Assembly: GCA_036924285.1 (NCBI GenBank)
Contig: JAYKYS010000006.1
Span: forward strand, 21,426,001-21,490,000
From: Asterella californica
Taxonomy: Eukaryota > Streptophyta > Marchantiopsida > Marchantiales > Aytoniaceae
Reading direction: 5' to 3'
Length of the DNA: 64,000 bases
Shown here: piece after piece, positions 1 to 59,851 of the stretch
How the letters are laid out: the number at the start of each line of letters is the position of its first letter
Position numbering within the stretch: the first letter of the stretch is position 1
Position numbers and translations under genes: made by a program
Notes under the pieces: model-generated
What the model was told of the DNA's origin: nothing
Seen by the model: only the letters and a program-made list of their open reading frames with translations
Database searches by the model: none

Positions 1-1000
1 GCTCGTTGAGAACATGCTCTCACCCACATATCCGGGTCATCAAGGTTCAGCACCTCAGCAGAATCACGACGAATGACCGAAGGTAGATATGGATTTCGAC
101 CGTATAATAGAAAATACGGTGAGAAGGAAGCCAAAGACGCTTGTCGACTAAAACGGTAGCCCATAGCCAACCATGATAACTGCACATCCTAGTCTCCCAA
201 GTGGCCCTTCTGCAAGCCATACTTACGCAATCCTCTCTTCACCGTCTGAACTACCCTCTCCGCCAAACCATCCGCCTCAGGATGATCTCGAGATGTAGTT
301 CAATGATCAATCAGCGCCTGATCACACAAGATCTGAAACTCACCAAGGAACTCTGTACCTTGGTCTGTCAGCACTTCAGCTGGTGCTCCAAAACGACTCA
401 ACACTCGATCTAAGAATGCATACGCTGTCCCTTCACTCGCCTTGTCTGGTAATGCCACCAACTCAATCCACTTGGAAAAGTGCTCCACCATCACCAACAC
501 ATATCGATGATGACGTACAGTTAACGGTAAGGGTCCCGCAAAATCCAAACTTCAACGGTAACCCAACCCCATAATCGGTAAGGGGTGTAACTGTGAAATA
601 GGAGCATTAAACGATGCTCGTACTCGATCACAAACCACACATCGTGCAACAAACTTTTGCACATCGACGTGCATACCACGCCACCAATACTGTCCTTGGA
701 GTAAGCTATGCGTGCGCTTCACTCCAAAATGTCTCAACTCCTCATGAGCATGTCGTACTAACTGTGCCCTCTGAGATGGATGTGGCACTATCCGTACTCT
801 CCCATCATCCCACACTCGAAGTACATGTCGTCTTTCTCGTCGAAATCTCTTCGCTCGTTGAAGGACACGATCTCGCTCCTTGGCACTTACTGTGTCTACC
901 ACCACACTAGTACGTAGATACTCCATCACAGTCACATCGTCATGGATATCTCGCTGGTTTGGAACACCATCTCCACCCTCAGGATCTGGAGACTCGTCAT
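1..1000 (-). pseudogene. Integrase region of the gypsy-like pol (partial, two stop codons)
   Basis: The N-terminal zinc-binding part (about 800-640) has paired His residues (HAHEEL...H) followed by CVVC, an HHCC finger. The catalytic core begins near 550 with DFAGPL, which carries the first Asp, and continues to the second Asp in LTDQGTEF near 350. A stop at 552-554 replaces a Trp codon and a stop at 300-302 replaces an Arg codon. Both parent codons are inferred from the related plus-strand copy at 15.8-16.2 kb, where they read TGG and CGG. The catalytic Glu would lie beyond the second stop, so this copy cannot make a working integrase. The C-terminal part continues toward the window edge. 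Confidence 0.85.
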
Positions 1001-1002
1001 CT

Positions 1003-1613
1003 ACTCTCTCACTTGAGAAAGATACGACTTGGCCCTCCATACTAGAGTTCATGGCCAACACAAAAAAAAAGACAGATGCATGCCACCTCGACACTATCTC
1101 CTCATCAACCTCGTCATGCCATCGAGCCTCAGTCTGATCCTGCTGACTCGTGCATGGGTTACGACTCAACCCATCAGCATCTAGGTTTGCAACTCCCGGT
1201 CTATGCATTACCTGGAAGTCATACTCCTGTAAGATCAGAGCCCATCGTGCAAGCTTCCCTGTAAGCTTGTCGGACTTCATCAACCACTTGAGCGGCTGGT
1301 GATCAGTGATGAGAGTAAAGGGGTTCCCAAACAGATAACATCGGAAGTGTGCAACAACCCACACTGCAGCTAAACACTCCCCCTCGTACGAACTGTACAT
1401 CGTCTCCGCCGAATTGTTGGAGCGACTGACATACGTCACCACAAACTCCTTTTTCTCATCATCATGCTAAGTCAGTACTACTCCAAGTCCCAACATACTT
1501 CAATCAGTGTGCAGTTGGAAAGGACGTCCCCTAACGGGTCTCCTCAAGATGGGAGCAGATATCAACCTATCCTTGAGCTCCACAAAAGCTTGCTCTTGCT
1601 CATCTTCCCACTG
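1003..1613 (-). pseudogene. RNase H region of the gypsy-like pol (two stop codons)
   Basis: Four acidic residues expected of a retroviral-type RNase H can be seen in order: the Asp of LHTD just before a stop at 1500-1502, the Glu of EGECLAAV, the Asp of LITDHQPL and the Asp of NLDADGLSRN. Stops at 1500-1502 (probable Trp codon) and 1467-1469 (probable Gln codon) interrupt the domain. A third stop at 1614-1616 separates it from RT. All are in the same frame as RT upstream and integrase downstream, so this was one polyprotein. A linker of roughly 100 residues rich in Asp, Glu and Arg leads to the integrase zinc finger. Confidence 0.85.
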
Positions 1614-2627
1614 TCACTCCTGGTCCACCTTCATCAACTTGGTCAATGGCTTCGCAATTGCACTAAATCCTTTCACGTATCGACGATAAAAGTTCACCAA
1701 ACCAACAAATGCTCGAACTCGACTCACATCTGTGGGACGTGGAATACGTGCAATGGTCTCGACCTTCGTTTGTTGAACACCCAACCCACCTGGGTAGATG
1801 GTGTGACCCAGATACTCTACCAACTCCTGGAAGAACTTGCACTTCCCATGGTGTAACTTCAACCCATGAGCTCTCAACCACTCGAACACATCCCGTAAGT
1901 GTCTCTCATGCTCCTCCACTGTAGCACTATAGACTAAGATGTCGTCAATATAGCATCTGACAAAATCCAATCCTGCTAGGATCCTATCCATCACTCTTTG
2001 GAATTCAGCAGGGGCGTTCTTCAACCTAAATGGTAAGAACCGCCACTGATACAAACAATCCTTGCCGTGAGAGTCAATCCCCCAGAATGTTGTCTTGGTT
2101 TTATCTTCCTCTCTCACCGGCAACTGATGATACCCTGCTTGAAGATCCAAAGTACTGAAGACCTTCACATTCCCCACTGCATCAAAGATCTCCTCAGGTG
2201 TCGACATGGCATACTTATCGGACTTCGTCTGCCGATTGATAGGACGGTAGTCTCCACACATACGTCTATCCGTGTAGTTGTCATACATATCCTTCTTTGC
2301 TGGCATAACTGTGACAGATGCATACTCTCCATACGACATCTCCACCAACCCAGCTTCCACCAAGTCTTGAGTCCTATTCTGGATCAAGGTTCTCTCCATG
2401 TCATTGTACCTGTAAGGACGTCGAAAGATTGGCGTGTCATTAGCCAAGTCGATCCGTATACCCGGTCCCTTCAAGGTACCCAAATCCTTCATACTAAAGG
2501 CAAAACAATTCGTGTAGCTTTTCAGGAATCTCTGAACTCTTCGTCTCTCCTCTCCTATAAGCTTGGGTCCGATCTTTGGCTCCCAAGTATCTTCTGTCAC
2601 CATGCTAGAGGTAGAAGACGAAGTCAT
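1614..2627 (-). pseudogene. Reverse transcriptase region of the gypsy-like pol
   Basis: This 337-codon open stretch holds a complete RT core. FSTLDLQAGYHQ carries the first catalytic Asp, and the YIDD box carries the other two. The LKNAPAEFQRVM segment is the usual thumb-side conserved block, and YLGH with FVGLVNFYRR marks the connection toward RNase H. It is the best preserved piece of this pol. It is bounded by a TAG at 2634-2636 on the methyltransferase side and a TGA at 1614-1616 on the RNase H side, both in frame. The family is clearly Ty3/gypsy-like. No host function is implied. Confidence 0.9.
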
Positions 2628-2633
2628 TGACTG

Positions 2634-3851
2634 CTATCTTGCAGCCTCTGGAGCAGTTTCCTTCTGCTCACCACTAACAACCTCCACCGCTACTGTGCGA
2701 AAAACTTCTACAGTTCTAGCTGCAAGCTCCACACTCTCTCCTATGACATCCCATGATGTCCAAGGATGACGAACTCCACGTGCCTCGCCCCCAGCCTTTG
2801 CCTCCACCGACTCGGTAGGCAAAGAGCTCAAGAGTGCTCGAGCAGTAACACCCGTCAATCGCATCCGACGCTGCTCAGCCAATCCAAGGCTAACAATCCA
2901 TGTCAAGCAGTTCAAGTCCATTGCTTGACCCAACACTTGACGACATGAAGCCTCCGACACCGAAGCTACTGCCGTCGTACCCGTAGTGAAACCCATCGCT
3001 CGCTCTCTCTCATCGGCATTGGTCTCCACCAATTGCCGTAATTGAGCATCCCACACAAGCCCAGGTCCTCCATCTCTGTAAGCATGTGATGTTGGAAAGC
3101 TTACCAAAGTAGGTAACGCTACCATGGACCGTCCCACTAGGTTCACCACTGCCATGGGTGACCTATCGACGATCTCACTCCTTGAGATCGTCGTCCTGCA
3201 TCCAAGATGCTATCAACCGTGAGATGCGCTGGTCGTCTCACTTCATCGTGTGCGCGCTTAAGCACCTCTCTCGGTAACAAGTTCGTCCACCACAACCATG
3301 GACGATGTGCACGAGATCCTACTCTCGCTGCATCCAACAACACTGCTGGTCCAACCCAAGACCGAACTTGGTGCACGCTCCATCATGTGTGCACGAGCAT
3401 CACCCAACAAAGGAACATTCTCCAAGATGTACGCTGGAGAATCCATCTGATGCATCTGGAGATGTCGTAAGATTCGTAACATCTCCCAAAACATCCTAGA
3501 TCGTGGATCATGCAAACCCTGACCTCTCCCAGCACGGGTGTGATCTTGACATGGCCACCCCGCTATCACCAAGTGAATGGTGCCAACAAACGTGAGATCC
3601 TGCGCCCTCAGCAGCGAAATATCTGACGGCAATGCTTGCTGGTATCCTCTAACGGCTGATATAGGCAACAACTCAGGATATCTCTACACCAAACGTGCCA
3701 CGTGACGCAATGAGACACGTCTTGCGACCTCATCTCTCTCCACATACAAGTATCGCTGTCCTTGTATGCCTGCCTGCAATACCGCAGCCAAACCTGTGCT
3801 GATCCCTCCAAATAGCTCCAGCACACACACACCCTCCTTTGGATACTGTCA
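2634..3851 (-). pseudogene. C5-DNA cytosine methyltransferase domain embedded in retrotransposon pol (broken)
   Basis: Between protease and RT lies a catalytic C5-MTase domain of about 325 residues. Visible in order are motif I (VLELFGGISTGLAAVL), motif IV with the catalytic Cys (AGWPCQDHTRAGRG), motif VI (YILENVPLLGD), a later Arg/Trp-rich block (GSRAHRPWLWWTN), and a C-terminal block with ERERAMGF and LGQAMDLN that fits motifs IX-X. The pattern is closest to DNMT3/DRM-type enzymes by eye; that subfamily call is inference. A stop lies at 3684-3686, in a probable Gln codon. Frameshifts fall near 3375-3390 and near 3160-3200. The last third runs in the RT frame, separated from RT only by the TAG at 2634-2636. 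A linker after the domain, about 2870-2637, has no recognised motif. No ADD, PWWP, UBA or BAH domain is seen. The catalytic Cys and ENV residues are present but the copy is dead. Confidence 0.87.
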
Positions 3852-4660
3852 TGCAATGGGAGTCGTATCCAACGGTGTTAAGGTCACAGGACCAGTAACA
3901 GGAACACCCCGATGTTTCTCTACTGGCGGTACAAAGACTTCACTCCAAGCTTGCTACACCAACCGATCAGCATATTGCTGCAACTCTCCACTCGAACTCC
4001 AGAGTGGAACATCTAAAGCAGATGGTACTAATATAGACATGATAGACATGTCCTCCACCTCCTCAAAAACCGAAGTATCCTCCGCATGGACATTGCCCTC
4101 CAACAACTCGCCCGGCCAAGTGATGATCGAACTGAACCCTGCAACGGATGCCATCGTCCCTGGTGTAGGCTCCGTCGTCTCAACTCTAGCACTGAACCGC
4201 ACTGGTAAGCGGCTCACTCGTCCCTCACCGAACTGCCAACCTGGTCTGTAAGATGTTGTCTCCGTCCAATAGTCGATCACGAACCCCATAGGGTACAACA
4301 CAGCACCTCCCACCAATACATCATAAGACTCTGCGGCTACAACGATGGCCTTGGCCCTCACCATAGAGCCATCCGTGGGGTGATCTGACCGAACTCTCAC
4401 CGTCAACATCTCACGTGTCATGTGTAGAGCCGTACTTCCTGATCCCCCTAGAGATGTCTGCAACTGGAATGGACATCTCTCCACCTCGGACTTCTTTAGA
4501 CCCAAACCAATACATGCCGCCTTTCCCAACATCAACGGTTGGGCTCCAGAGTCTAACAAGACCTTATGAGGTCGATACACTTTCTCTGAAGGTGCCACCA
4601 AACAGAAGATACCACTTCTGTTGTCCAACAACACCACACCTGGTGCCAAACCAGCACGGT
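3852..4660 (-). pseudogene. Retropepsin-type protease region of the gypsy-like pol (3' part)
   Basis: The active-site motif reads LLDSGAQPL. A downstream VLVGGAVLYPMGF block fits the second conserved region of a retropepsin. The frame continues through a stop at 3954-3956 and another at 3849-3851 straight into the methyltransferase motif I, so protease and methyltransferase were one polyprotein. The upstream part of the same reading frame resumes at 11151 on the other side of the nested element, and the phase matches exactly when one copy of the 5-bp target duplication is counted. Confidence 0.82.
4656..4660. repeat. Target-site duplication, left copy (ACGGT)
   Basis: ACGGT sits directly outside the left LTR and is matched by ACGGT at 11147-11151 outside the right LTR. 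Five base pairs is the usual length for gypsy-type integrases. Confidence 0.85.
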
Positions 4661-6682
4661 ATCGTGTCGGATATTTTGTGCGTGAAGGATGTCCAGGAAA
4701 ACGCGAGGTTCCTGGCTGTGGAGATGCTGTGTGCCAAACAGAGACAAGACAGAGAAGAACAACCACGAAAAAGGAATGCTGCGATATATACCACTCTGAA
4801 AGTATGTACACTGTCGATTCTTTCTCCAAACAGCACAAAACTGAGGAAAAGACCAGAGCGGTCTGTAACCTACTTCAGAAGCCCTAAAACAAACCCCTGA
4901 AACGTAACCCTAGTCTGAAATCGCCAAAACGTAGCTCAAAGCAAGAGGAACTTCTCTTTGCTAACAACCAGAGCCACAACAGTATCATGCGATCCAAACC
5001 CAAGTCCAAACCACATCCACACACTAGCTCTTGGCTAAAGCTAGCTACCACAAGCCATACACAACCAACTAAGTCCTTAACGAACTCAAAAGGACGAAAC
5101 CTGTAGCGAAGGAACCGAAAAAGACCTATCTGGGAACTTTCTCCTTTCGCCAAACGATCTTCAAATGTTGATAGGGTCTCCTTCCCTGACTCCGTTGGCC
5201 CAAGAAACCTTCAGATCCGGCTCCCGATAGTTGAGATGTCGCTAATTTTCGGTCGCAGGTGACCGAACCTTCAAAAACTCCTCCCTGCGGCTTAAAACCG
5301 CTCACACCGCACAAACGGATCGTCTAAACTGATATCCGTCTTCGCTGGTAGGTAGATCTGGCTACTCTGAACCCAACAAGACTCCAAACAAGCCGTTTGG
5401 AGTTCCCCTTGCAAAACTACTCGAGAAATTTGGTCGCAGGCTACAAAAAACTGACGTAAATCGGCTCCCTGCGACTCAAATTTGCTCACCACACCCAAAC
5501 CAACAATCCAATTCACTTACAGTCTTCTCCTATGCGTACATGAGGACTCCCTGATCGCGTAGGCACCAAGAACGAAGAGCTTGGTTCACCGATCGCGAAG
5601 AACAATCCAATCTCAGATCGCAGGCGATGAAAACCTGACGCAAGCGCTTCCCTGCGAGCCAATTTCTCTCACAACTCTCAAACCGCCCGATAAAACTTTG
5701 TATCGTCTTCAATTTCCTGAAGAACTCGTTCTTCTGATCCCGATGATCCAAGGACAGCAAGTTTGGACTCCGGAACGGCCCGAACGGTCCAACTCTCCTT
5801 CACAGGTAACTGAAAAACCCAATTCTGCTCCCTGCGTCTCAATTTCTCCCAGTACGCACTCCCTGATCCGTCTCTTCCCAAACCGTTTGAACCAGTGCGT
5901 AGCCTGCACAGATCTGAACCCAACGACGCCTTGCGCGCTTGCATTGGACTCCTAAATCTCTCGCACCGTCCGCTGACAGGTCGCAGGCGCAAGCAAGCCC
6001 CTTAAGCAGCCCCCTTGTTACAGTCTGTACGTACGAAGTTCACTCCTGAATAATAAGAAGCAGGCCCCTTGCGTCTTTGATATAACGCCTGAAGCCCTGA
6101 ATACCCAGTCAGCAAGTAACTAGGGGCCTAGCTTGATTTTACCTTCTTTCGAATCGCATAACTTCTTCCCTGGATGTCCAAACGAAGTAAACAAGATGCC
6201 CATGGAAAGCTGACAATGAGCTCTATCCATCTATGCGATAAAAGCGAAGATCCGAAGTTGCGCCAAAAACTCGTAAGCTGGGGCCTAGCTTGTTTTCTCC
6301 ATCTTTCGAGTCCTGTAACTTCTTCACTATGCGTCCAAACGAAGTAGACAAAGTGCCTATGGAAAGCTGACAAGGAGCTCTACCCATCTATGTGATGAAA
6401 ACGAAGATCCGAAATGGTGCCAAAAACCCGTAAGCTGGGGCCTAGCTTGTTTTCTCCATCTTTCGAGTCCTGTAACTTCTCCACTAGGCGTCCAAACAAA
6501 GTAGACAAAGTGCTTATGGAAAGCTGACAAGGAGCTCTACCCATCTATGCGATGGAAATGGAGATCTGAAATTGTGCCAAAAACTCGTAAGCTAGGGCCT
6601 AGCTTGTCTTACCCATAAGTGTCTTTGGAGCGACAAAAGTCAAAATTTGATTTTCATGTAGGAGCCGGTCCACGACACGACA
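4661..6682 (-). repeat. 3' LTR of the nested element (2022 bp)
   Basis: This repeat matches 9125-11146 base for base apart from about eight substitutions, mostly C/T or G/A. On the minus strand it starts TGTCGTGTCG and ends in CGACACGAT, giving a short imperfect terminal inversion but an AT rather than CA end. It contains three and a fraction tandem 157-bp units at 6123-6604. No protein gene is supported; small open frames in it repeat identically in the other LTR only because the DNA is duplicated. Confidence 0.92.
6123..6604. repeat. 157-bp tandem repeats inside the 3' LTR
   Basis: Units starting with GGGCCTAGCTTG begin at 6123, 6280 and 6437, with a partial fourth at 6594, giving an exact period of 157. 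Each unit contains GAGCTCTA(C)CCATCTATG and a CCAAAAACYCGTAAGCT end. The same array recurs at 10587-11068. Confidence 0.9.
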
Positions 6683-6694
6683 TCCACCCCCTCC
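6683..6694 (-). other. Polypurine tract of the nested element
   Basis: On the minus strand GGAGGGGGTGGA lies directly upstream of the TGTCG start of the 3' LTR. This is the expected place for the plus-strand primer. Confidence 0.8.
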
Positions 6695-7360
6695 AAACAT
6701 GTGCATCCTCCGGTATGCACCAGAGATACCAACCAAGGAGTGGACCGACACTCAACCATCTTGTCATCCTCCCTCCCATCTCAGTCAACCTCATCCTCAA
6801 GGTTGCAACCTGATCGTCATCTTGAAGTTGCTACCCTGCCATGATCCTTCCTAGATCCATGCTCATCGATCTTCACCTCGAACCTCTCATCCAATCACCT
6901 CCTCTAGATCTACATATCTTTCAATATGCAAAGAGATAGAAAGAATAACCCATCATATCATAAAAATGTCTTTCATCCGTCTTGTAGAACCTCATCGTCG
7001 AGGTTTGTGATCCAAATGTCGTAGTAGACATCACCCATCCTCCCAATCATCATCGCATATCTTGACTGTAACCCTCAAGCTCAAGTCTGTACATGTCATC
7101 GTATCTATCCAACTCTTCTTTTCTGTTTTCTGAAAAAAAGAACCACACTGCTGCAACCAAAATCCTCAACCGCAACCATCATTGTCTCGCTGTACAATGA
7201 TATCCTCCTCAATCATCATCCTCCCTGATCTCTTCTTCTGAAAATCCTCACAACCTCCCAAGCATCACTCTCTCAACCCAAATCACATGTAAACTTTCAC
7301 AACCTCTCAAGCATAATCACCATCAGCAATGGCTTCTCCCCTGTAAGCCATCCTTACCCA
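6695..7360. other. Untranslated 3' interior of the nested element
   Basis: About 670 bp between the gag stop and the polypurine tract. It is C/T-rich on the plus strand, with CTCATC and CCTCCC runs. I see no protein domain, tRNA or inverted repeat in it. Confidence 0.6.
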
Positions 7361-9010
7361 TCATTCTATACCCGTAGCATCCAGAGCATCCATCCACTCT
7401 CCTTCACCCTCAGCATATCTGTCCTTGATGATGCCAATGGTGGCATCGTGGACTTCTCTTGCAGCTGCACCCAAGACCTCCCGTGATATGAACCCAATCT
7501 TCGCATCTCGAATGCACTCCTCCCAACCTCCTCTCACATCCATAGTCATAACCCCAATATCTGGTTGTTGTATGTTTGCAACCAGATCAACCATGTCCAC
7601 TGTCTGCACCCCAACCATCTCCTCCGGTTGTGAAGGATCACCCTCCATTGCCTGTTCAGGAAGAATAGTTTCCTGTTGAACTTTATCCTCCCTGACTTGC
7701 TTCTCCGAAGAAATCTCTTCTTGTCTCTTCTTCTCGTTCTGCATCGTGGATGCAGTAGCCAACTTGAGCTCGCTTGGATCCACGTGCTCATCCGAATCAT
7801 CCATATGGAGATTATGCTCAATCTCCTCCACCCTAGTACCATAACTTGTAGCTTCGATAGCTACAACTGCATGTGCCGCAAGATAATCATCCACCAATTT
7901 CTTCATCCCTCCTTTACCAACGTTGGCTTGAAGGAGAGTACCCGTACTTGTGAATGCAACCTTTCCATCCTCCCAAGAAATTACCTCTCGTTGCAAAGAC
8001 TCTGCAAAGTCGATGCAATCGTCCCGCTGATGATCAGTACCATCACACCACATGCAGTGATGTACCCAAGCTGGTTTGGGTTCAAGCTCCATCTCAATCG
8101 ACGATCCCTTATCCTCCAACCTAGTAACCTTAGCTTGCAGATCTTGCATCTTTTGCTGTAGGTCCTCGATGGTTGGATCCTTCTCCTCTACAACTACAAC
8201 TGGAGGTTGAACCTCAGATACTACCCGAACTGGTGTGGTAGTCAACGCTGCAGGTGTCAACCTTGTAACTCTTTCTCTTGTATGTCTCCAGACAAGAAGT
8301 TCAACCGCTTCATGCACAACCTCCCAATTCCTTGTTAACCCATCTTCTTCCTCCGCATCCTCCAGAAGTAGCTCTAACCGTTCTTGCCATGTCTCATCAG
8401 CAGCTTGAAGAAACAACTCTGTCTTGTAAGTCTCCAAGGCTAGCTTGTCCACCTGAGGTAGTTGAGAGAATTGTCTCTCAAATTCCTTTAACAGCTCTGT
8501 AGGCTGTAAACCCTTGTTGGATCTGTTGACCCATCCCAAAAATGATTTCTTGGTTACTCGATCTGAGTTTCCCAAGAAATACTCATCCATCAGCGCATGT
8601 GAAAATGTATCCCAGTTCCTCCCAAAACGCTTTGTTAGACCTTTCACATGCTCCCTTATCTCAAGCACCGCAGCGAGTTCGAATGTCTCGATCATCTCCT
8701 TCTCCGGTACTTGATCCAAATCCATCTCCGTCTTGTAACATCTCAAGTACTTTGAGATGTCTCTCCCACCAAAAAGATCAAACTTGCCGATCACCCTTCC
8801 AAGCGCCTTCTTCCCCAAAGCCTCATTTTGTTCCTTCTCTTGCTCTTGTCGCATAAACAAAGTGAACGCTTGAAACAATCGTGCAGTTGCTGCATCCAAC
8901 TGCACCCCTGGTATCCCCTCTGATCTATCCATCCTGTCCAAAGTCATGGCTCGTCCCATCCTCCCATGATCCCAACCGTCTACATATCCATCATCCCAGG
9001 TCCGCAGCAT
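7361..9010 (-). CDS. Gag-like protein of the nested LTR element
   Basis: An intact ORF of about 549 residues if read from the ATG at 9010; a few upstream in-frame codons lack ATG. The middle part (roughly residues 80-260) is helical and rich in charged residues and Trp, as in capsid-type gag proteins. A coiled-coil-like stretch rich in Glu, Leu and Lys follows near residue 300. A CX2CX4HX4C zinc knuckle (CMWCDGTDHQRDDC) comes next, followed by a GKGGMKKLV segment. The C-terminal part is acidic. No protease, RT or integrase motif is present, so it would act as the particle protein of an element mobilised by another pol. It has no premature stop, in keeping with the young LTRs. Confidence 0.82.
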   Translation of the reverse strand: MLRTWDDGYVDGWDHGRMGRAMTLDRMDRSEGIPGVQLDAATARLFQAFTLFMRQEQEKEQNEALGKKALGRVIGKFDLFGGRDISKYLRCYKTEMDLDQVPEKEMIETFELAAVLEIREHVKGLTKRFGRNWDTFSHALMDEYFLGNSDRVTKKSFLGWVNRSNKGLQPTELLKEFERQFSQLPQVDKLALETYKTELFLQAADETWQERLELLLEDAEEEDGLTRNWEVVHEAVELLVWRHTRERVTRLTPAALTTTPVRVVSEVQPPVVVVEEKDPTIEDLQQKMQDLQAKVTRLEDKGSSIEMELEPKPAWVHHCMWCDGTDHQRDDCIDFAESLQREVISWEDGKVAFTSTGTLLQANVGKGGMKKLVDDYLAAHAVVAIEATSYGTRVEEIEHNLHMDDSDEHVDPSELKLATASTMQNEKKRQEEISSEKQVREDKVQQETILPEQAMEGDPSQPEEMVGVQTVDMVDLVANIQQPDIGVMTMDVRGGWEECIRDAKIGFISREVLGAAAREVHDATIGIIKDRYAEGEGEWMDALDATGIE

Positions 9011-9102
9011 CCTCCCGAACAACCAAACTCATCTTCATCCTCATTCATGATTGTTGATCTCCTCTGCCCAATTCTGACACACAAATATCTCCACCCCGGA
9101 CC

Positions 9103-9120
9103 TTCACGTCGAGTTCACCA
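9103..9120 (-). other. Primer-binding site matching tRNA-Trp
   Basis: The plus strand reads TTCACGTCGAGTTCACCA just inside the right LTR. Compared with the plant tRNA-Trp 3' end as I know it (TTCACGTCGGGTTCA plus CCA), 17 of 18 bases match. It lies four bases inside the 5' LTR end. This orients the element on the minus strand. Confidence 0.8.
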
Positions 9121-9124
9121 CCGT

Positions 9125-11146
9125 ATCGTGTCGGATATTTTGTGCGTGAAGGATGTCCAGGAAAATGCGAGGTTCTTGGCTGTGGAGATGCTGTGTGCCA
9201 AACAGAGACAAGACAGAGAAGAACAACCACGAAAAAGGAATGCTGCGATATATACCACTCTGAAAGTATGTACACTGTCGATTCTTTCTCCAAACAGCAC
9301 AAAACTGAGGAAAAGACCAGAGCGGTCTGTAACCTACTTCAGAAGCCCTAAAACAAACCCCTGAAACGTAACCCTAGTCTGAAATCGCCAAAACGTAGCT
9401 CAAAGCAAGAGGAACTTCTCTTTGCTAACAACCAGAGCCACAACAGTATCATGCGATCCAAACCCAAGTCCAAACCACATCCACACACTAGCTCTTGGCT
9501 AAAGCTAGCTACCACAAGCCATACACAACCAACTAAGTCCTTAACGAACTCAAAAGGACGAAACCTGTAGCGAAGGAACCGAAAAAGACCTATCTGGGAA
9601 CTTTCTCCTTTCGCCAAACGATCTTCAAATGTTGATAGGGTCTCCTTCCCTGACTCCGTTGGCCCAAGAAACCTTCAGATCCGGCTCCCGATAGTTGAGA
9701 TGTCGCTAATTTTCGGTCGCAGGTGACCGAACCTTCAAAAACTCCTCCATGCGGCTTAAAACCGCTCACACCGCACAAACGGATCGTCTAAACTGATATC
9801 CGTCTTCGCTGGTAGGTAGATCTGGCTACTCTGAACCCAACAAGACTCCAAACAAGCCGTTTGGAGTTCCCCTTGCAAAACTACTCGAGAAATTTGGTCG
9901 CAGGCTACAAAAAACTGACGTAAATCGGCTCCCTGCGACTCAAATTTGCTCACCACACCCAAACCAACAATCCAATTCACTTACAGTCTTCTCCTATGCG
10001 TACATGAGGACTCCCTGATCGCGTAGGCACCAAGAACGAAGAGCTTGGTTCACCGATCGCGAAGAACAATCCAATCTCAGATCGCAGGCGATGAAAACCT
10101 GACGCAAGCGCTTCCCTGCGAGCCAATTTCTCTCACAACTCTCAAACCGCCCGATAAAACTTTGTATCGTCTTCAATTTCCTGAAGAACTCGTTGTTCTG
10201 ATCCCGATGATCCAAGGACAGCAAGTTTGGACTCCGGAACGGCCCGAACGGTCCAACTCTCCTTCACAGGTAACTGAAAAACCCAATTCTGCTCCCTGCG
10301 TCTCAATTTCTCCCAGTACGCACTCCCTGATCCGTCTCTTCCCAAACCGTTTGAACCAGTGCGTAGCCTGCACAGATCTGAACCCAACGACGCCTTGCGC
10401 GCTTGCATTGGACTCCTAAATCTCTCGCACCGTCCGCTGACAGGTCGCAGGCGCAAGCAAGCCCCTTAAGCAGCCCCCTTGTTACAGTCTGTACGTACGA
10501 AGTTCACTCCTGAATAATAAGAAGCAGGCCCCTTGCGTCTTTGATATAACGCCTGAAGCCCTGAATACCCAGTCAGCAAGTAACTAGGGGCCTAGCTTGA
10601 TTTTACCTTCTTTCGAATCGCATAACTTCTTCCCTGGATGTCCAAACGAAGTAAACAAGATGCCCATGGAAAGCTGACAATGAGCTCTATCCATCTATGC
10701 GATAAAAGTGAAGATCCGAAGTTGCGCCAAAAACTCGTAAGCTGGGGCCTAGCTTGTTTTCTCCATCTTTCGAGTCCTGTAACTTCTTCACTATGCGTCC
10801 AAACGAAGTAGACAAAGTGCCTATGGAAAGCTGACAAGGAGCTCTACCCATCTATGTGATGAAAATGAAGATCCGAAATGGTGCCAAAAACCCGTAAGCT
10901 GGGGCCTAGCTTGTTTTCTCCATCTTTCGAGTCCTGTAACTTCTCCACTAGGCGTCCAAACGAAGTAGACAAAGTGCTTATGGAAAGCTGACAAGGAGCT
11001 CTACCCATCTATGCGATGGAAATGGAGATCTGAAATTGTGCCAAAAACTCGTAAGCTAGGGCCTAGCTTGTCTTACCCATAAGTGTCTTTGGAGCGACAA
11101 AAGTCAAAATTTGATTTTCATGTAGGAGCTGGTCCACGACACGACA
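9125..11146 (-). repeat. 5' LTR of the nested element (2022 bp)
   Basis: Near-identical to 4661-6682, with about eight substitutions seen by eye. It lies upstream of the primer-binding site and gag on the minus strand and so should hold the promoter. I could not pick out a convincing TATA box. The 157-bp tandem array recurs at 10587-11068. Confidence 0.92.
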
Positions 11147-11151
11147 ACGGT
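11147..11151. repeat. Target-site duplication, right copy (ACGGT)
   Basis: Matches 4656-4660 and abuts the outer end of the 5' LTR. Its minus-strand reading supplies the Arg codon that links the two halves of the interrupted protease frame. Confidence 0.85.
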
Positions 11152-11499: not shown

Positions 11500-13320
11500 C
11501 ATCGGTAGGTCATTTAGGAATCATAGATGTGGTCCTCAACGCCTCCGATAACGTGAACGACTGAGGAAGCCTGATCTGTCTACCAGCCTCCCCGCGTTGT
11601 GGATCCAACTCCACTGACGCACCTCGTGGCTCAGAGACACGTACTGCACCTCTAGTCACTGCCGCAGATGCCTCAATCTACGCCACACCAGCCATGAAGT
11701 CGAAGTCACCTCCTTCTCCTCCATAAGACGTGGAAGCCTCTGTTCCACCTGATCTCCGCTGAGCCATAGTCATACTAGCTATCCTCTGCTCCAACTGTTC
11801 AATCGAGCAGCCATACCTGCTTTGACGTCGTAGCAGGCGGTGGACCAATTGATCCTCTCCCAGGTGTTGGACCTCTACCTCCAGCTCGACCACCACGGCC
11901 TCCCTGAGCTCCTCCGCCTCGTCCACGATCAACCTTCCCTTGCCGTAGCTCAAGATGAAGATCAAAACAACGGTCACTACTGTGACCTGGTCGCCCGCAA
12001 TGCTCACACTGCCTAGGCACCGCTTGAAACGTCCCAGATGTCTCATAACCACCTCTCCTTTGTGGACAATCCTTTTGCTGATGAGGACCATCACAAGTCC
12101 AACAAGGACCTGCTTGCTGCTGACTAGAGAAGGACGGCATGGGCTTCTGCCCACCAGATCCTCCAGCACCTCCATGGGATCACGAGTGTTCAACACGATC
12201 CTTACCACCACCACCACCACGCTGTTGCGTAGCCTGTGATCCTCGAGAAGAGGAGGTCGCCCTATGTGATGCGAGTCCCACCCTCTCCTCTACCATGTTG
12301 AGCTCTATCCGCTCAGCCAAACTAAAGACAACCGCTAATGTCGGAGCGGTGTCTCTAAGGAGAGTGGCATCCCTGACTCTCCTACGCAGCTCCCGATCTA
12401 GTATCCCATACCAGAACTGGACTGCATGTGCTTCTGTCACCCCTTGGGTAACGCTGATCAACCGCCTCATGCGAGTAAACGCCTCGCGTAGGCTCTCTCC
12501 AGTCTTTCGCTGGAACTCCTGCAGACTCTTCAACTTGTCGGTCTGCACACCCTGATAATTCTTCCTCAAACAGTGGAAGAACTGAACCACAGGGTTAAAC
12601 TCTGGTGGTATCCCGCTCGCACTACCACCTGCTCCACTACTAGTGGACGCACCGTTGGTAGTAAGGACTCCGCCACTCGTGGATGTACCACTACTACTGG
12701 CACCTGACCTCGTAGGTGCTACGCCTCCCGAAACTACACCAGTAGTGATAAAAACGTAGTTGAGAGACCAATGTTGTCTCTACAACTCAATCTCAATACC
12801 GTAGTCTCGTCTGAACTCGTGGTAATCGTCCATCGACAGTCCCTCCAAGTGCTGAAACAAACCTTTCCACGCCATGAAAGGTGTGAACAACTGTGGGTTC
12901 CGCATCTGCTGCAGATCGCACCAACTGTCGAACTCCTGGATGAAGTCATCCAGCTCAATGGTACCCACCGTACTCGAGTAATGTCGAGGCCCCTTCGTGA
13001 CCCCATAGATCTCGTCCATGTCCCACAACAACGATGTGGTGACACTAGACTCACCACCAGAAAACGTGTTGTCTGCGTCTGAATCGTCCTCTAGAACAAC
13101 CAACGGCAATGGTGTAGATCGTCGGTATCTCACCCCACTCCGTGTATACCCACTGTCCGAGAAGTCCTTACCAAAACTTCCCGAGAACTTCGTGGTGATA
13201 GAATCTCACGGACCAGAATGTCGAAATCCTCGTCACCACCGTAACTACAACTTGTCTATCCCCGCTCCTACTGAGCTCACTTATCTCCTACTAGGACGGT
13301 CAAGGTAAGGGCAACCTGTA
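11500..13320 (-). pseudogene. Gag region of the gypsy-like element (several frameshifts)
   Basis: Open pieces in different frames together resemble a retrotransposon gag. One piece near 13130-12780 is acidic and contains WDMDEIYG. One near 12590-12180 contains FHCLRKNYQG, LQEFQRKTGESLREAFTRM and FWYGILDREL, typical of the gag capsid core. One near 12140-11799 carries two zinc knuckles, CWTCDGPHQQKDC and CEHCGRPGHSSDRC, followed by Gly/Arg-rich sequence. Frames change between and within these pieces, so no product is expected. It lies directly upstream of the protease segment. Confidence 0.78.
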
Positions 13321-14969
13321 CCTACCATCACCACAAGCAGCCTCTCACGGTTTGTTGATCGTCACTTCAACTGCACCGTGAGAGAAACAAAGATAGTCTG
13401 ACTGATCATCACTCCAGTCTCACTACCGACATCACACTAGAGTAAACTCACTCTGGAAATCAAGCGCCAACACAGCAAAAATGCGGCTCACAAACAGGAA
13501 GTAGAATATGGAGGGGTTCCAACCACAAGAAGTCCAAACGATAACCCTCCACACTCAAACATTCACATAAAGAGAAACCCAGCCCCACCCGGACTGACGC
13601 GTCTTCTTCGGTGACCACATGCACAATATATGATCACCCGATTGTTATAACTTGTACCTAAGGTCACTAACTAGATGTCCATACCTCTAGTAGCTCCAAA
13701 AATATCAACGTGATAGCTCTACTAGCTCATCCAAGACAACTGCTACGAACTACCTTCATACGCGTCTTTTCGGTATAGGCAAACACTACCACAACAGCAG
13801 CTTCCCCCTAGTACTCTGGGGTCGCCCTACCACTCCTCTAGGAACGTGCGAGCAAGTCTCCTACTATCTTAAACCAGCCCCTAAGTACTTGCACGCATCC
13901 CTGTAAGACACCAAGAGCTATTGGTCTAGTGGTACAGCCAAAGTTGAGACTACAGAGTTAAGCGTCCAAGTCCAGAAATAGTGTTGGAATGGGTGACCTA
14001 CTGGTTTTACACTTCTCACACAACTGAAACTTGGATACCTCTCTCACGCACGCCAGCAAGCTGGCTTGCAGCGGGCGCGGGCTCAGGCTTTGCTCCGCCT
14101 CCGCACTCTCGCACTCCGCTCTCACGCCTCCGCACTCACGCACCTCTGCTCCTCGAAGCCTCAACTCCACACCTCGACACTCCCGCTCACTCTCCGCTCC
14201 GCTCCGTTAGGAGAAGAGTACCCGGGCCAAACACCATAAAGAAGGACGAGTACGACGAGAAAACACCCGAAACAGCAACTCAGGGTCGAAATTGCACCAA
14301 ATTGTCGAAATCAGCCAATTTGGAACTCGCAGACGGGATTTACGTCAGATTTTGGCCAACCCGCGACCTTCTTCGGCTTGTAACTTAGTCGATCCTTCAC
14401 CAAATCGAACGATTTTGGTTGCGTTGGAATCGTCTTCTCGGCGCGCACCTACTGCACTCCTCAGATCCAAAAATTATCGACCCAATCTAACCTGACACTC
14501 CCCGACGCACTTCTGCTGACCTGAAACCCGTCACAAAACCCGTCACCAGAAATTTCGACTTCTCATAACTCAAAAACGGCTCGACCAAACTTCGTGAATC
14601 TTCCTGCACTAAGACCGTCTTCCCAGTGCGCTTCCAACGAGCCCACATTGGTCTGACATTGTCGACTATTTCGTCTGCCACGCCCAAATGCGCATTTCAG
14701 TCCGAAAATGGTCACTTCAACACATTCCGCGAAATTTCAGCAGCGCTTCCGCATTACCTCACCACCAAATCGACTGCGAACAAGTTCAGACGACACCCAT
14801 ATACATAGCGATCGATCACAACACCCAAAACGAACTACTCCACGCACGTGCGCACCCGCAAATCGAAGATACCAACGATCTGTCAACTCCGGAGATACCA
14901 CCGGCAGCAATCTGCGACCTGAAATCTCTAAACCAGGCCTCTCAATCCGAGTTCTTCAAGTTATAACAA
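13321..14969. other. Probable 5' leader/LTR territory of the gypsy-like element, with no protein gene
   Basis: About 1.6 kb upstream of gag on the minus strand. It includes a GC-rich stretch (14050-14220) with repeated CTCCGC/CACTC words and a 5S rRNA-derived segment at 13940-14008. I could not find a matching second LTR in the window, so LTR borders are not set. Short open frames here show no domain. Confidence 0.45.
13940..14008 (+). repeat. 5S rRNA-derived sequence
   Basis: AGTTAAGCG at 13956 and the block GAATGGGTGACCTACTGG starting at 13987 resemble the internal promoter of plant 5S rRNA (AGTTAAGCG and GGATGGGTGACCTCCTGG). The distance between the two blocks, 31 bases, equals that in 5S rRNA. 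A TTTT run follows at once. The flanks are much less similar, so this is a derived piece rather than a working 5S gene. Known 5S-derived mobile elements are Cassandra TRIMs and SINE3; which this is, if either, is open. Confidence 0.7.
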
Positions 14970-15241
14970 GGTATGTACTCACTCCATCTGCCAACAGGCA
15001 CTAGACAATCACTACAGTCGAGCCAAATCCACTTTGTGCTCACAGAGAATCCAGATCTCACTCTCAAGACTACTCACCATAGCCAGGAGCTTGAAAGCTC
15101 AACTTGAAGAATTGAGGTCTCCAAGCCCCTACCTGCGAAGTATACCCCTTGTGGACACTCTCACCAACTTGCCCTAACGGCCTTACCGGGGTCCGTCACT
15201 TGGCACTCGGTCAACCTAGCCGAGTTATCAAACTGACGTGA
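14970..15241. repeat. 271-bp direct repeat, copy 1
   Basis: Starts GGTATGTACTCA and ends AAACTGACGTGA. It matches 17214-17484 with scattered substitutions and small gaps. The pair flanks a 2-kb segment holding an integrase fragment and a PHD fragment, so it could be LTR remnants, but termini and target duplications are not clear. Confidence 0.7.
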
Positions 15242-16620
15242 CAACCTAGATGTCGATGGATTGAATCGCAACTCATGCACGAGTCAGCAGGATCAGACTG
15301 GGGTGAAGATGACATGACGAGGTTGATGAGTAGATAGTGCTAGGGTGGCATGCATCTACCTTTCTTTGTGTGTTGGTCATGAACTCTAGTATGGAGGACC
15401 AGGTTGTATCTTTTTCAGATCAGAGAGTAGATGGTGAGTCTCCAGATCTTGAGGGTGGAGATGGTGTTCCAGACCAATGAGATATCTACGACGATGTGAC
15501 CGTAATGGAGTATCAACATACTGGCGTGGTGGTAAGCACAGTAAGTGCTAAGGAGCGAGATCGTGTCCTTCAACGAGTGAAGAGATTTCGACGAGAAAGA
15601 CGACATATACTTCGAGTGTGAGATGATGAGAGAGTACAGATAGTACCACATCCATCTCATGATGAGAGGGCACAGTTAGTACAACATGCCCGTGATGAGT
15701 TGAGACATTTTGGAGTGAAGCGTACACATAGCTTACTCCAAGGATAGTATTGATGGTGTGATATACATATTGATGTGCAACAGTTTGTCGCACGATGTGT
15801 GGTTTGTGATCAAGTACGAGCATCGTTTAATGCTCTTACTCCACTGTTACACCTCTTACTCATTATGAGGTTGGGTTACTGTTGGAGTTTGGATTTTGCG
15901 GATTCTTATAGTTGATTGTATGTCGCCACCGGTATGTATTGATGATGGTGGAGCACTTCTCCAAGTGGATTGAGTTGATGACATTACTGGACAAAGCAAG
16001 TGAAGGGACAGCGTATGCGTTCTTAGATCAAGTGTTGAGTCATTTTGGAGCACCAGCTGAAGTGCTGACAGACCAAGGTACAGAGTTCCTTGATGAGTTT
16101 CAGACCTTGTGTGATCAGGTGCTGATTGATCATCGGACTACATCTCGAGATCATCTTGAGGCGGATGGTTTGACGGGAGAGGGTAGTTCAGACAGTGAAG
16201 AGAGGATGCGCAAGTATGGCTTGAAAGACCACTTGAGGGACTGAGATGTGCAGTTATCATGGTTAGCTATGGGTTATCATTTTAGCCGACAAGCGTCTTT
16301 GGCTTCCTTCTCATCGTACTTTCTATTGTATGGTCGAGATCTAGATCTACCTTCGGTTATTCGTCGTGATTTTGCTGACGTGCTGAACTTTGATGACGCG
16401 GATATGTGGGTGAGAACATGTTCTCAACGAGTAGAGACATTTTGGAGTGTTATGTCATGGCTTTTGAGAACTTAGCGATGCTCAGCATAAAGACACGTTG
16501 TGATATACGACTGTTCGAGGAGGAGGTTATCAATCATCAATTCGCAAGTTTCATCCTGACAGTTATATCTATCTGCAGCAGACTGCACTGAGGACATTGG
16601 ATGTGACCGCATGACGCACT
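15242..16620 (+). pseudogene. Degraded RNase H end plus integrase fragment of the same gypsy-like family
   Basis: This plus-strand segment is a diverged copy of the minus-strand sequence at 1-1200. It opens with the NLDVDG part of RNase H, passes through a broken zinc-finger region, then the integrase core (LTDQGTEFLDEF at about 16066-16110) and a C-terminal segment with LSWLAMGY and PSVIRRD. Many stops and shifts are present. Where the left copy has stops at 552 and 300, this copy reads Trp (TGG) and Arg (CGG), which shows that those stops are recent changes in the left copy. Confidence 0.82.
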
Positions 16621-16912
16621 ATTTTACGAGTGCGTGAGGTGTTACCTTCTGGAGTACTCATGTTAGAGGGCCGTAATGGTGTTGTTTGAAAGGACCATGT
16701 GCGTTGTCATCTTCCCAACTTCGATGGTATCGTTGACTCATCGTCTCCCAAACTGACAATTAGGTCCTTCTAACTCCAGATAGTCCCATGTCCCAACTAC
16801 GCGATATACATCTTCATGGGTGTAAGGATCAGTAGGCCGGGTGCTACATCGCCCCATCATTAATCACATGTGTGCAATCCATACCATGCAAAGATCTAAT
16901 CAGCTATCTCTG

Positions 16913-17104
16913 CTATATACATCGAGGACAAACCCACCGTCCACTAAGAACGAGACTGAGAGATGGAGTCAAACATGACATGTGCCAACCTCTCGAACAA
17001 CCATCACACATCAACATACGGACTGCTCCACCAGCAGACCCACATAACATACATCTCAAGATTTCTCTCTTGTAGCTTAGCTGCACTATCGTGCGCATAC
17101 ACAT
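16913..17104 (-). pseudogene. PHD-finger fragment within retroelement debris
   Basis: A short minus-strand open frame contains a full Cys4-His-Cys3 pattern: CMLC, then CDGC, then WHMSC, then WVCPRC. This is a PHD zinc finger, a fold that usually reads histone H3 tails. It lies between two 271-bp direct repeats, next to an integrase fragment on the opposite strand. No start, stop or larger protein context supports a live gene. A retroelement origin is inference from location. Confidence 0.72.
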
Positions 17105-17213
17105 CGCTACACAACATACATCGCTGTCAGAGGAACATCACATGTACACATAACACATGGACGATCTCATACACATACACACAAGTGTACCACGATGATA
17201 AACGGTATGTACT

Positions 17214-17484
17214 CATTCCATCATGCCAACGGACACTAAACAATCACTAAAGTCGAGCCAAATCCACTCTGTGCTTGGAGAGAATCCAGATTATACTCAC
17301 CAAGACTATCCATCATAACCAAGAGCTTGAAGGCTCAACTTGAAGAACTAAGGCCTCCAAGCCCTACCTGCGGAGTATATCCCTAGTGGGCTATCACACC
17401 AACTTGCCCTAACGGCACTAACGACCTACCGAGATTCGTCACTCTACACTCAGTCAATCTAGCCGAGGTGCCAAACTGACGTGA
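17214..17484. repeat. 271-bp direct repeat, copy 2
   Basis: Matches 14970-15241 in the same orientation, including GTCGAGCCAAATCCACT and CCAAGCCC(C)TACCTGCG words. The two copies differ at many sites, so this is older than the nested LTR element. Confidence 0.7.
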
Positions 17485-17930
17485 TAGATGTCATGCGTAT
17501 ACACATTGCAACCTCTACCTCTCCTACCTCATTTCATAGTTAAGACAACAACATGTCTAGCAATGACTCACTCTACAACATTATACAATAAATAAATCTC
17601 TAAAGCATGGTTGGAAAATAGATCAATTGACGATGATGTTACACACTCATCGATTATCTATTCTATTGTCATAGATTGACTTAACAAGATGTTGCTTCAC
17701 TTCTTGCGCTCCAAACGGTCCACATCATAAGACTAATTCAAACAGGTTATTATAAATACGATACAATTACAAATTCACAAATGACAAGTGATCAGTGAAC
17801 GCATTTGTAACTCATGATAGTCTCATTTGTTGTTGGACGTGAAATCAATCTATATGAGAAAAAATTAGAAATCTATAGTTTTGAGTGTTATATCACTCTC
17901 AAATTCTTTGCACGTGATACTGTGCTCCCC
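17485..17930. other. No gene seen
   Basis: AT-rich DNA without a convincing open frame or repeat structure. Confidence 0.5.
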
Positions 17931-21880: not shown

Positions 21881-22122
21881 AACCGAAGGTCTGATATCAG
21901 ATAATCATTAAGTTATGAGTGATTTAATTTATTATATATGTTTTCTTATCATAATAATTAGATAATAAATAAATCCTGCCACCTTCTCCATCTTCAGATG
22001 CAACCGAAGGTCTGATATCAGATAATCATTAAGTTATGAGTGATTTAATTTATTATATAAATTTTCTTATCATAATAATTAGATAATAAATAAATCCTGC
22101 CACCTTCTCCATCTTCAGATGC
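21881..22122. repeat. 121-bp tandem duplication
   Basis: Units 21881-22001 and 22002-22122 are almost identical; ATATATG versus ATATAAA is one difference seen. Each unit ends in CACCTTCTCCATCTTCAGATGCA, the B-type arm of the two-hairpin family. The duplication therefore involves part of that repeat. Confidence 0.88.
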
Positions 22123-59507: not shown

Positions 59508-59851
59508 CGTAATATGCCTCACTTATGATTTTCTAATTCGCCTGTACACAGACCAGATCTATGGGATCCTCTTCTCACTCTCAGCTAGAGTGACTCCGTA
59601 AATATAGTAGTTCTGCAACTCTTCGTTTCGGTTCCTGCAAATAGGACTTCAGTTTTTGTCTGCAGCCAAATTTTACCTACGAGGAAATCAACAAGAATTT
59701 CATGAGCAAGAGAAAGGAACACAGGACTTGGGAAGTAGTAAGACTGAGACCTGACGAGAAAAGCTGAAGGAGTCCTGAAAAGAAGGGTTCAACTGAAACG
59801 AGCAGTGAGCAGGAACTACTGCTATGCTGGCTCAATGGATACAATCTGCTC
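59508..59851 (-). promoter_or_regulatory. Upstream region of the fucosyltransferase gene
   Basis: About 340 bp between the fucosyltransferase start and the next small open frame. I cannot place a transcription start. Confidence 0.3.

What the first reader, a model, noticed from the sequence alone, without database searches (positions are those of the whole stretch)
2634..3851. DNA cytosine methyltransferase captured inside a gypsy-like pol polyprotein, between protease and RT
Seen: motif I, the PCQ catalytic motif, ENV and a C-terminal LGQAMDLN block, all within a retrotransposon pol. The protease frame runs into motif I, and the last third of the domain shares the RT frame. It is a polyprotein domain and not a nearby host gene. 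Known, from memory: retrotransposon-borne DNMTs were reported in dinoflagellates and in the charophyte Klebsormidium. Inference: this is such an element, with a DNMT3/DRM-like catalytic domain that may let it shape its own chromatin state. The position between PR and RT, and its presence in what may be another plant lineage, deserve attention.
Basis: partly seen in the sequence, partly recalled or inferred. Interest (0 to 1): 0.9.

Follow-up and report, generated by a model that had tools for sequence, protein, structure and literature searches.

The report
Liverwort jumping gene carrying DNA methyltransferase
A liverwort-like genome holds hundreds of copies of a jumping gene that carries its own DNA-methylating enzyme, placed just before a stop signal of a kind that ribosomes sometimes read through; such elements were known from a green alga, so this is a new and informative variant rather than a new kind of thing.

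Summary
A DNMT3-type cytosine methyltransferase domain (window 3833-2859, minus strand) lies between protease and reverse transcriptase (RT) of a decayed Ty3/Gypsy element, in one frame. It is not DRM-like: its motifs are not rearranged. The host is probably a liverwort near Marchantia.

The family is large: an exact junction signature occurs 853 times in the 517-Mb genome, and 16 of 123 listed matches sit in open frames of 1,367-1,381 aa. Relatives occur in Marchantia, Calypogeia, Sphagnum and metagenomes.

So it would be made with Gag. (2) The element has split direct repeats, a DDE integrase and a PHD finger; in one clade (Haematococcus, metagenomes) the domain sits after RNase H.

Klebsormidium Gypsy-Dnmt3 elements (PMC5890265) are the precedent. 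Readthrough and self-methylation are inferred, not shown.

The parts
14963..15243 (-). 5' terminal repeat A1 (281 bp), starts TGTCACG; first base of the element at 15243
   Evidence: 97.5% identical to A2 left of the window at -774..-1054; 4-bp target-site duplication AGGT
12312..13019 (-). Gag of the DNMT element (relative of the N-terminus of Marchantia P0004)
   Evidence: tblastn 61% identity, E 9.5e-93
11949..12110 (-). two CCHC zinc knuckles
   Evidence: translation
4660..11146 (-). nested younger LTR element (foreign to the DNMT element): LTRs 4660-6682 and 9124-11146, gag-like ORF 9022-7361, flanked by ACGG at 4656-4659 and 11147-11150
   Evidence: LTRs 99.5% identical over a 2,031-bp alignment, ends and flanks read by eye from the same output; none of nine seeds of the DNMT element matches inside
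4236..4643 (-). aspartic protease (LDSGAQP)
   Evidence: tblastn 64%, E 2e-59; translation
2859..3833 (-). DNMT3-type C5-cytosine methyltransferase domain, canonical motif order; broken in this copy
   Evidence: relatives up to 62% identical over nearly the whole queried region
2634..2858 (-). C-terminal tail of the gag-PR-DNMT frame; near-neutral among genomic copies
   Evidence: tail length close to that of proteins of Marchantia and Calypogeia; dN/dS 1.18
2625..2633 (-). TAG CAG TCA: stop codon in a UAG-CAR-YYA readthrough context, RT in the same frame
   Evidence: 853 exact genomic copies of the family's 24-nt junction signature (the window's own copy has ATG instead of ACG and is not among them)
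1818..2585 (-). reverse transcriptase
   Evidence: PF00078 1.1e-30
1158..1547 (-). RNase H
   Evidence: PF17917 8.3e-25; 82%
3..596 (-). integrase core and start of its C-terminal part; the rest, a PHD finger and repeats B1-A2-B2 lie just left of the window (to about -1163, locus L048)
   Evidence: H2C2 zinc finger upstream, PF17921 1.7e-16

Best explanation
This is a decayed copy of a large, recently active Ty3/Gypsy retrotransposon family that captured a DNMT3-type methyltransferase. Translation of its RNA mostly stops at a UAG directly after the methyltransferase, giving Gag-protease-DNMT. A minority of ribosomes read through the UAG-CAR-YYA signal and add RT-RNase H-integrase-PHD. The enzyme is thus made at Gag-like amounts and should be packaged with the RNA and RT, where it can add CG (or other) methyl groups to the element's new cDNA before or at integration. 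Shown by sequence: domain order, frame, shared stop context, purifying selection on the enzyme, split direct repeats, DDE integrase, PHD finger. Inferred: recent activity, readthrough, packaging, methylation of its own cDNA and any benefit from it. My separate odds: DNMT captured by this element family 0.98; leaky stop 0.85; enzyme still selected for activity 0.85; self-methylation of cDNA as its role 0.4.
For: DNMT3 class; tree apart from the host's DNMT3 and DRM, support 95/99 and 100/99. Element order in other copies: GAG-CCHC-PR-DNMT matches in one frame at C154, C92 and C102; DNMT-RT-RH-IN-PHD matches in one frame at C154, C207 and C313 (C154 has a stop between integrase and PHD). Leaky stop: in 30 of 38 TE junctions the DNMT frame runs to TAG-CAR-TCA exactly 74 aa after the domain, with RT in the same open frame in 29 of those 30 (the other stretch showed no RT); 5 of the remaining 8 carry the motif behind a stop or frame lesion; 853 exact signatures, reversed-pattern control 0. 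Relatives end near the same place: tail after LGQAMD is 93 aa here, 92 in Marchantia P0004, 94 in Calypogeia P0006 and P0105, 88-94 in P0009, P0045, P0063 and P0126. The signal's definition was seen in PMC3542737 (passages). Selection: median dN/dS 0.20 for DNMT, 0.11 for RT, 1.18 for the tail. Recent activity: A1/A2 99.7% identical at C313 and 16 of 123 matches in long open frames. Precedent for activity: both tested SymbioDIRS-Dnmt3 copies methylated CG in yeast (PMC5890265, section 10 read).
Against: The Klebsormidium Gypsy DNMT, the nearest tested kind, showed no activity in yeast; its authors call that inconclusive. Low variation of the 9-nt signal is not exceptional: 25 of 214 windows in the tail are as invariant, because copies are young (median 94% identity among 18). 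Tail lengths of other relatives differ (72 in P0007, 85 in P0095, 98-158 in more distant groups), and I did not check on DNA that each of those proteins ends at a stop codon. Some Marchantia gene models (P0010, P0012, P0017) and Sphagnum P0019 run from DNMT into RT without a stop, which could mean splicing. In metagenome P0121 (seed match) and, by eye, P0096 and P0128 DNMT and RT share an uninterrupted frame. dN/dS pairs share history, and stop-free copies were chosen. No expression or methylation data were available.
Confidence: 0.7

Rival explanations
1. The TAG is not recoded: RT-RH-IN is expressed from a spliced or subgenomic RNA or by re-initiation, and the UAG-CAR-YYA match is incidental.
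For: Several Marchantia gene models and one of Sphagnum join DNMT to RT across the stop, as splicing would. The window copy has an ATG two codons after the TAG.
Against: That ATG is ACG-like in 33 of 36 rows readable at its second base, window included, so re-initiation there is not the family's way. RT follows in the same open frame in 29 of 30 copies whose DNMT frame reaches the TAG. By equal codon odds a random stop would fit UAG-CAR-YYA about once in 1,500 (my calculation).
Confidence: 0.13
2. The DNMT acts on the host's chromatin or on other DNA (for example to silence rivals or keep copies quiet) and not mainly on the element's own cDNA.
For: Hundreds of copies could supply much enzyme; the PHD finger suggests chromatin contact; PMC5890265 discusses effects on the host epigenome (passages).
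Against: In Klebsormidium the methylome resembles that of land plants. The DNMT is tied to Gag-PR here, which favours action inside particles.
Confidence: 0.3
3. The DNMT has a non-catalytic use, such as binding DNA or RNA, or is a passenger.
For: A few relatives differ at the catalytic motif (ECQ in P0032, P0036, P0070, five others unlike PCQ).
Against: PCQ in 105 of the 113 rows where my pattern found the motif, and ENV or ENI in 116 of 138 (regex-based, fragments included, 152 rows in all); dN/dS 0.20.
Confidence: 0.12
4. The domain is a chance assembly artefact or a single host gene next to a retrotransposon.
For: None found.
Against: 853 junction signatures; of 38 fetched family loci all carry the domain and 35 show RT within the fetched stretch; relatives in other plants.
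Confidence: 0.01

Closest known systems
KnitGypsy-Dnmt3 of the charophyte Klebsormidium nitens (de Mendoza et al. 2018, PMC5890265)
   Same: Dnmt3-class domain without rearrangement in an LTR Gypsy element, DNMT under purifying selection, intronless copies, DIRS-like repeat structure with Gypsy domains (abstract, passages, sections 9 and 10 seen).
   Different: Here in a liverwort-like genome with hundreds of junction copies (the paper calls the K. nitens copies fewer than those of Symbiodinium); DNMT ends the gag-PR frame before a leaky stop, whereas the paper places it in the Pol ORF; PHD finger at the C-terminus.
SymbioDIRS-Dnmt3 and SymbioLINE-Dnmt of Symbiodinium (same paper)
   Same: Retrotransposons with a cytosine methyltransferase in the coding region; SymbioDIRS domains methylate CG in yeast.
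   Different: Other retrotransposon classes (DIRS with tyrosine recombinase, LINE); the authors treat the Gypsy capture as independent.
Plant DNMT3 and DRM host genes
   Same: Same catalytic superfamily; host DNMT3 (L020) shares motif order.
   Different: The host's DNMT3 is split over two frames as by an intron and its DRM has rearranged motifs (L020, L021); both branch apart.
Readthrough-type gag-pol retroelements and tobamovirus-type UAG-CAR-YYA signals
   Same: Stop between an upstream and a downstream coding part in one frame, with the type I context (PMC3542737 passages).
   Different: Here an enzyme of the DNA-methylating kind sits on the Gag side; I saw no such case in the listings.

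Membership tests
KnitGypsy-Dnmt3-like retrotransposons | Dnmt3-class catalytic domain with canonical motif order | tested here: met
   Motif order I-PCQ-ENV-RxR-LGQ; DNMT3A/B best structures
KnitGypsy-Dnmt3-like retrotransposons | Gypsy-type RT, RNase H and integrase | tested here: met
   PF00078, PF17917, PF17921; rve 2.1e-14 in copy C154. No RT tree was made
KnitGypsy-Dnmt3-like retrotransposons | DIRS-like repeat structure | tested here: met
   A1 ... B1-A2-B2 in the window element and C313; B1-A2-B2 also at C154 and C207, where no A1 was found
KnitGypsy-Dnmt3-like retrotransposons | DNMT inside the Pol polyprotein ORF | tested here: not met
   DNMT frame ends at TAG-CAR-TCA before RT in 30 of 38 copies; one polyprotein only by readthrough. 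The paper's own layout could not be viewed, so I describe this as like, not as a strict member
KnitGypsy-Dnmt3-like retrotransposons | Common descent with the K. nitens elements | not tested
   No K. nitens sequence at hand
DRM methyltransferases | Rearranged motif order (VI-X before I-IV) | tested here: not met
   Canonical order here; rearranged order seen in the host's own DRM L021
DIRS retrotransposons | Tyrosine recombinase in place of DDE integrase, no target-site duplication | tested here: not met
   rve integrase, 4-bp duplication AGGT and TG...CA ends; no dedicated search for a tyrosine recombinase was made, and C313 showed no perfect duplication
Ty3/Gypsy LTR retrotransposons | Two full LTRs flanking the element with a tRNA primer site after the 5' LTR | tested here: not met
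   Only A at the 5' end, B-A-B at the 3' end; the first 20 bases after A1 carry no TGG in the window, C92, C102 and C313
Programmed type I stop readthrough | UAG-CAR-YYA with downstream frame open | tested here: met
Programmed type I stop readthrough | Measured readthrough product | not testable with these tools
   needs an experiment

The most novel reading that the evidence does not exclude
A land-plant retrotransposon family keeps a de novo DNA methyltransferase as a structural-side (Gag-linked) particle protein by means of a leaky stop, so that each particle methylates its own cDNA before integration. The element arrives pre-marked, is less harmful and so tolerated in hundreds of copies, and such elements, spread from algae to mosses and liverworts, would be a self-silencing lineage whose enzyme moved position once within the polyprotein.
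Probability: 0.25. Interest if true: 0.85.

Novelty: new variant of a known kind. Interest (0 to 1): 0.6.

Why it matters
It turns an algal oddity into a widespread and abundant kind of element in early land plants and gives a testable account of dosage: the enzyme would be made with Gag, not with Pol. Liverworts such as Marchantia are experimentally tractable (general knowledge), so the open question whether a transposon methylates its own DNA, and why that would pay, becomes directly testable.

Tried and rejected
Rejected: a lone host gene (853 junction copies); DRM (motif order); the TAG as mere decay (same motif in 35 of 38 copies); re-initiation at the window's ATG (not ATG in most copies).

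Led nowhere or weak: viral contigs gave no relative for P0004 and, for profile A2, 19 loci, among which my RT and protease seeds found nothing. The conservation test of the 9-nt signal is not significant (25 of 214 windows). The first tree shows the RH-DNMT-IN type nested among the other TE DNMTs; the tree without four long rows (P0070, P0088, P0090, P0150) keeps that type as one clade (100/98, one change of position) but leaves the backbone unresolved, so I cannot say which position came first or whether there was one capture. An RT tree with other Gypsy elements was not made, and counts of altered codons at the stop were asked for and not answered. No A1 repeat was found upstream of gag at C154 and C207. 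Structure prediction never ran. Paper searches showed no report of DNMT retrotransposons in bryophytes; the library holds open-licence papers only, and I opened five papers, the rest as listings.

Full report
What is there. On the minus strand the window holds a broken Ty3/Gypsy-type element. Nine seeds from related proteins place Gag at 13019-12312, zinc knuckles at 12110-11949, protease at 4643-4236, DNMT at 3833-2859, RT at 2585-1818, RNase H at 1547-1158 and integrase from 596. All of these matches lie in frame -3. Between zinc knuckles and protease sits a younger nested LTR element (LTRs 4660-6682 and 9124-11146, 99.5% identical; ACGG on both sides, read by eye). The copy is dead: stops at 3956, 3851 and 3686, a stretch around 3376-3155 in another frame, a stop at 1616 and further shifts.

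Which methyltransferase. Pfam PF00145 reaches E 1.6e-10 on the ORF at 3671-3258. A profile of 11 relatives finds DNMT3A (2.5e-21) and DNMT3B before DRM-type entries (6e-10 to 1.7e-8), HhaI (about 1e-7) and DNMT2 (about 1e-5). The motif order is canonical. The host genome has its own DNMT3-like gene, split over two frames as by an intron (L020), and its own DRM with rearranged motifs (L021) (names by motif, my reading). In the tree the TE domains stand apart from both (95/99, 100/99). With one host DNMT3 and one host DRM only, this does not exclude other host DNMT3s within the TE group.

Host and spread. The window's intronless xyloglucan fucosyltransferase is 62% identical to Marchantia polymorpha and M. 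paleacea proteins, then 41% to Riccia; I infer a liverwort. The genome has 516.7 Mb in 773 contigs. PF00145 gives 123 scored matches out of 1,250 first-look candidates; 16 of the 123 lie in open frames of 1,367-1,381 aa. I fetched 40 of the 123 by region; 38 are this element family and 2 (L077, L078; 29% identity over part of the domain, no RT) appear not to be; L020 and L021, also among the 123, are host genes. An exact 24-nt junction signature occurs 853 times, with none for the reversed pattern. Protein relatives include Marchantia polymorpha (many), Calypogeia fissa, Sphagnum, M. paleacea and many metagenome contigs (35 hits; 340, of which 120 were listed; each search scored only the 8,000 best candidates).

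The leaky stop. The DNMT frame ends at TAG CAG TCA (2633-2625), and RT goes on in the same frame. In 30 of 38 family junctions the frame runs to TAG-CAR-TCA exactly 74 aa after the domain; in 29 of these 30 RT follows in the same open frame, and in the other no RT lay within reach. Five of the other 8 have the motif behind a stop or frame lesion. Proteins from Marchantia (P0004) and Calypogeia (P0006, P0105) and some without a name (P0009, P0045, P0063, P0126) end at nearly the same distance, 88-94 aa after LGQAMD against 93 here; others differ (72 in P0007, 85 in P0095, 98-158 in more distant groups). I take the stop as native. PMC3542737 (passages) gives UAG-CAR-YYA as the type I readthrough motif. 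Against this stand gene models of Marchantia and Sphagnum that join DNMT to RT, which may be real splicing or a predictor stepping over the stop, and metagenome proteins P0121, P0096 and P0128 (by eye) with no stop there. The motif's low variability by itself is not significant.

Selection. Among stop-free genomic copies, median dN/dS is 0.20 for DNMT (18 copies, 133 pairs), 0.11 for RT (13 copies, 59 pairs) and 1.18 for the 74-aa tail (30 copies, 74 pairs; chosen as carrying the stop motif) (pairs with dS over 0.05). Pairs are not independent and broken copies were left out, but the tail is an internal yardstick: the enzyme is constrained and the spacer is not.

Ends. The 5' end has one repeat, A1 (281 bp, 15243-14963). 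Left of the window the 3' end reads PHD - B1 - A2 - B2, with A1/A2 97.5% and B1/B2 97.2% identical. The element starts TG, ends CA and is flanked by AGGT; the interrupted target is another copy of the same family. B1-A2-B2 recurs at C154, C207 and C313, and A1 at C92, C102 and C313; no A1 was found at C154 or C207, the 3' repeats were not found at C92 and C102, whose matches end at RT and integrase, and C313 has no perfect duplication. The integrase is of the rve type and a PHD finger follows it (E 8.7e-13 at C154). A purine-rich stretch precedes B1 in the four copies seen, and no TGG primer start lies in the first 20 bases after A1. PMC5890265 says of the Klebsormidium element that its repeats are arranged as in DIRS while its domains are Gypsy, which fits.

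Second layout. Of 151 related proteins, 103 showed the DNMT domain alone, 42 have it after Gag or protease or before RT, and 6 have it after RT or RNase H, some then followed by integrase and PHD: Haematococcus P0036 and P0038, metagenome P0032, P0035, P0037 and P0064. These six are one clade (100/98) and the position changes once on the tree. The backbone is unresolved, so direction and number of captures stay open.

How it most likely works. Most ribosomes would make Gag-PR-DNMT; some would read through to add RT-RH-IN-PHD. The enzyme would then be packaged at high dose with the RNA and could methylate new cDNA. Only the sequence side of this is shown. In yeast, SymbioDIRS DNMTs were active, while the Klebsormidium Gypsy one was not, which its authors call inconclusive.

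Known and new. The kind is known (PMC5890265; abstract, passages and sections 9 and 10 seen). PMC12344493 (passages only) mentions retrotransposon DNMT3s in streptophytes and dinoflagellates by reference to the same work. I saw no report of bryophyte elements, the leaky stop or the moved domain in the searches named under Tried and rejected. I rate it a new variant of a known kind.

Noticed in passing
window 4660-11146: Nested LTR element with 2-kb LTRs (99.5% identical) and a gag-like ORF (9022-7361) but no match to the RT or integrase seeds: probably a young non-autonomous gag-only element.
   Followed up: partly
window 15244-16736 and left of window -4950 to -1164 (L048): The target of the insertion is another, older copy of the family on the plus strand; between its gag and the end of its RT, protease and DNMT appear to be missing.
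   Followed up: partly
window 16740-17512: PHD region and B-A-B repeats of the target copy lie inverted relative to its integrase, and in an order that one inversion does not explain.
   Followed up: no
P0032, P0035, P0036, P0037, P0038, P0064: Gypsy elements of Haematococcus and metagenomes with DNMT after RNase H (before integrase where that is present), three with PHD and P0035 with a Tudor-like domain; P0032 and P0036 have ECQ in place of PCQ.
   Followed up: partly
L020 (G000:C1:40145511) and L021 (G000:C419:30573634): The host's own DNMT3-like gene and a DRM with rearranged motifs.
   Followed up: partly
window 57543-59522: Intronless xyloglucan fucosyltransferase (GT37), 62% identical to Marchantia.
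   Followed up: partly
window 21881-22122: Two head-to-tail copies of a 121-bp unit, 98% identical.
   Followed up: no
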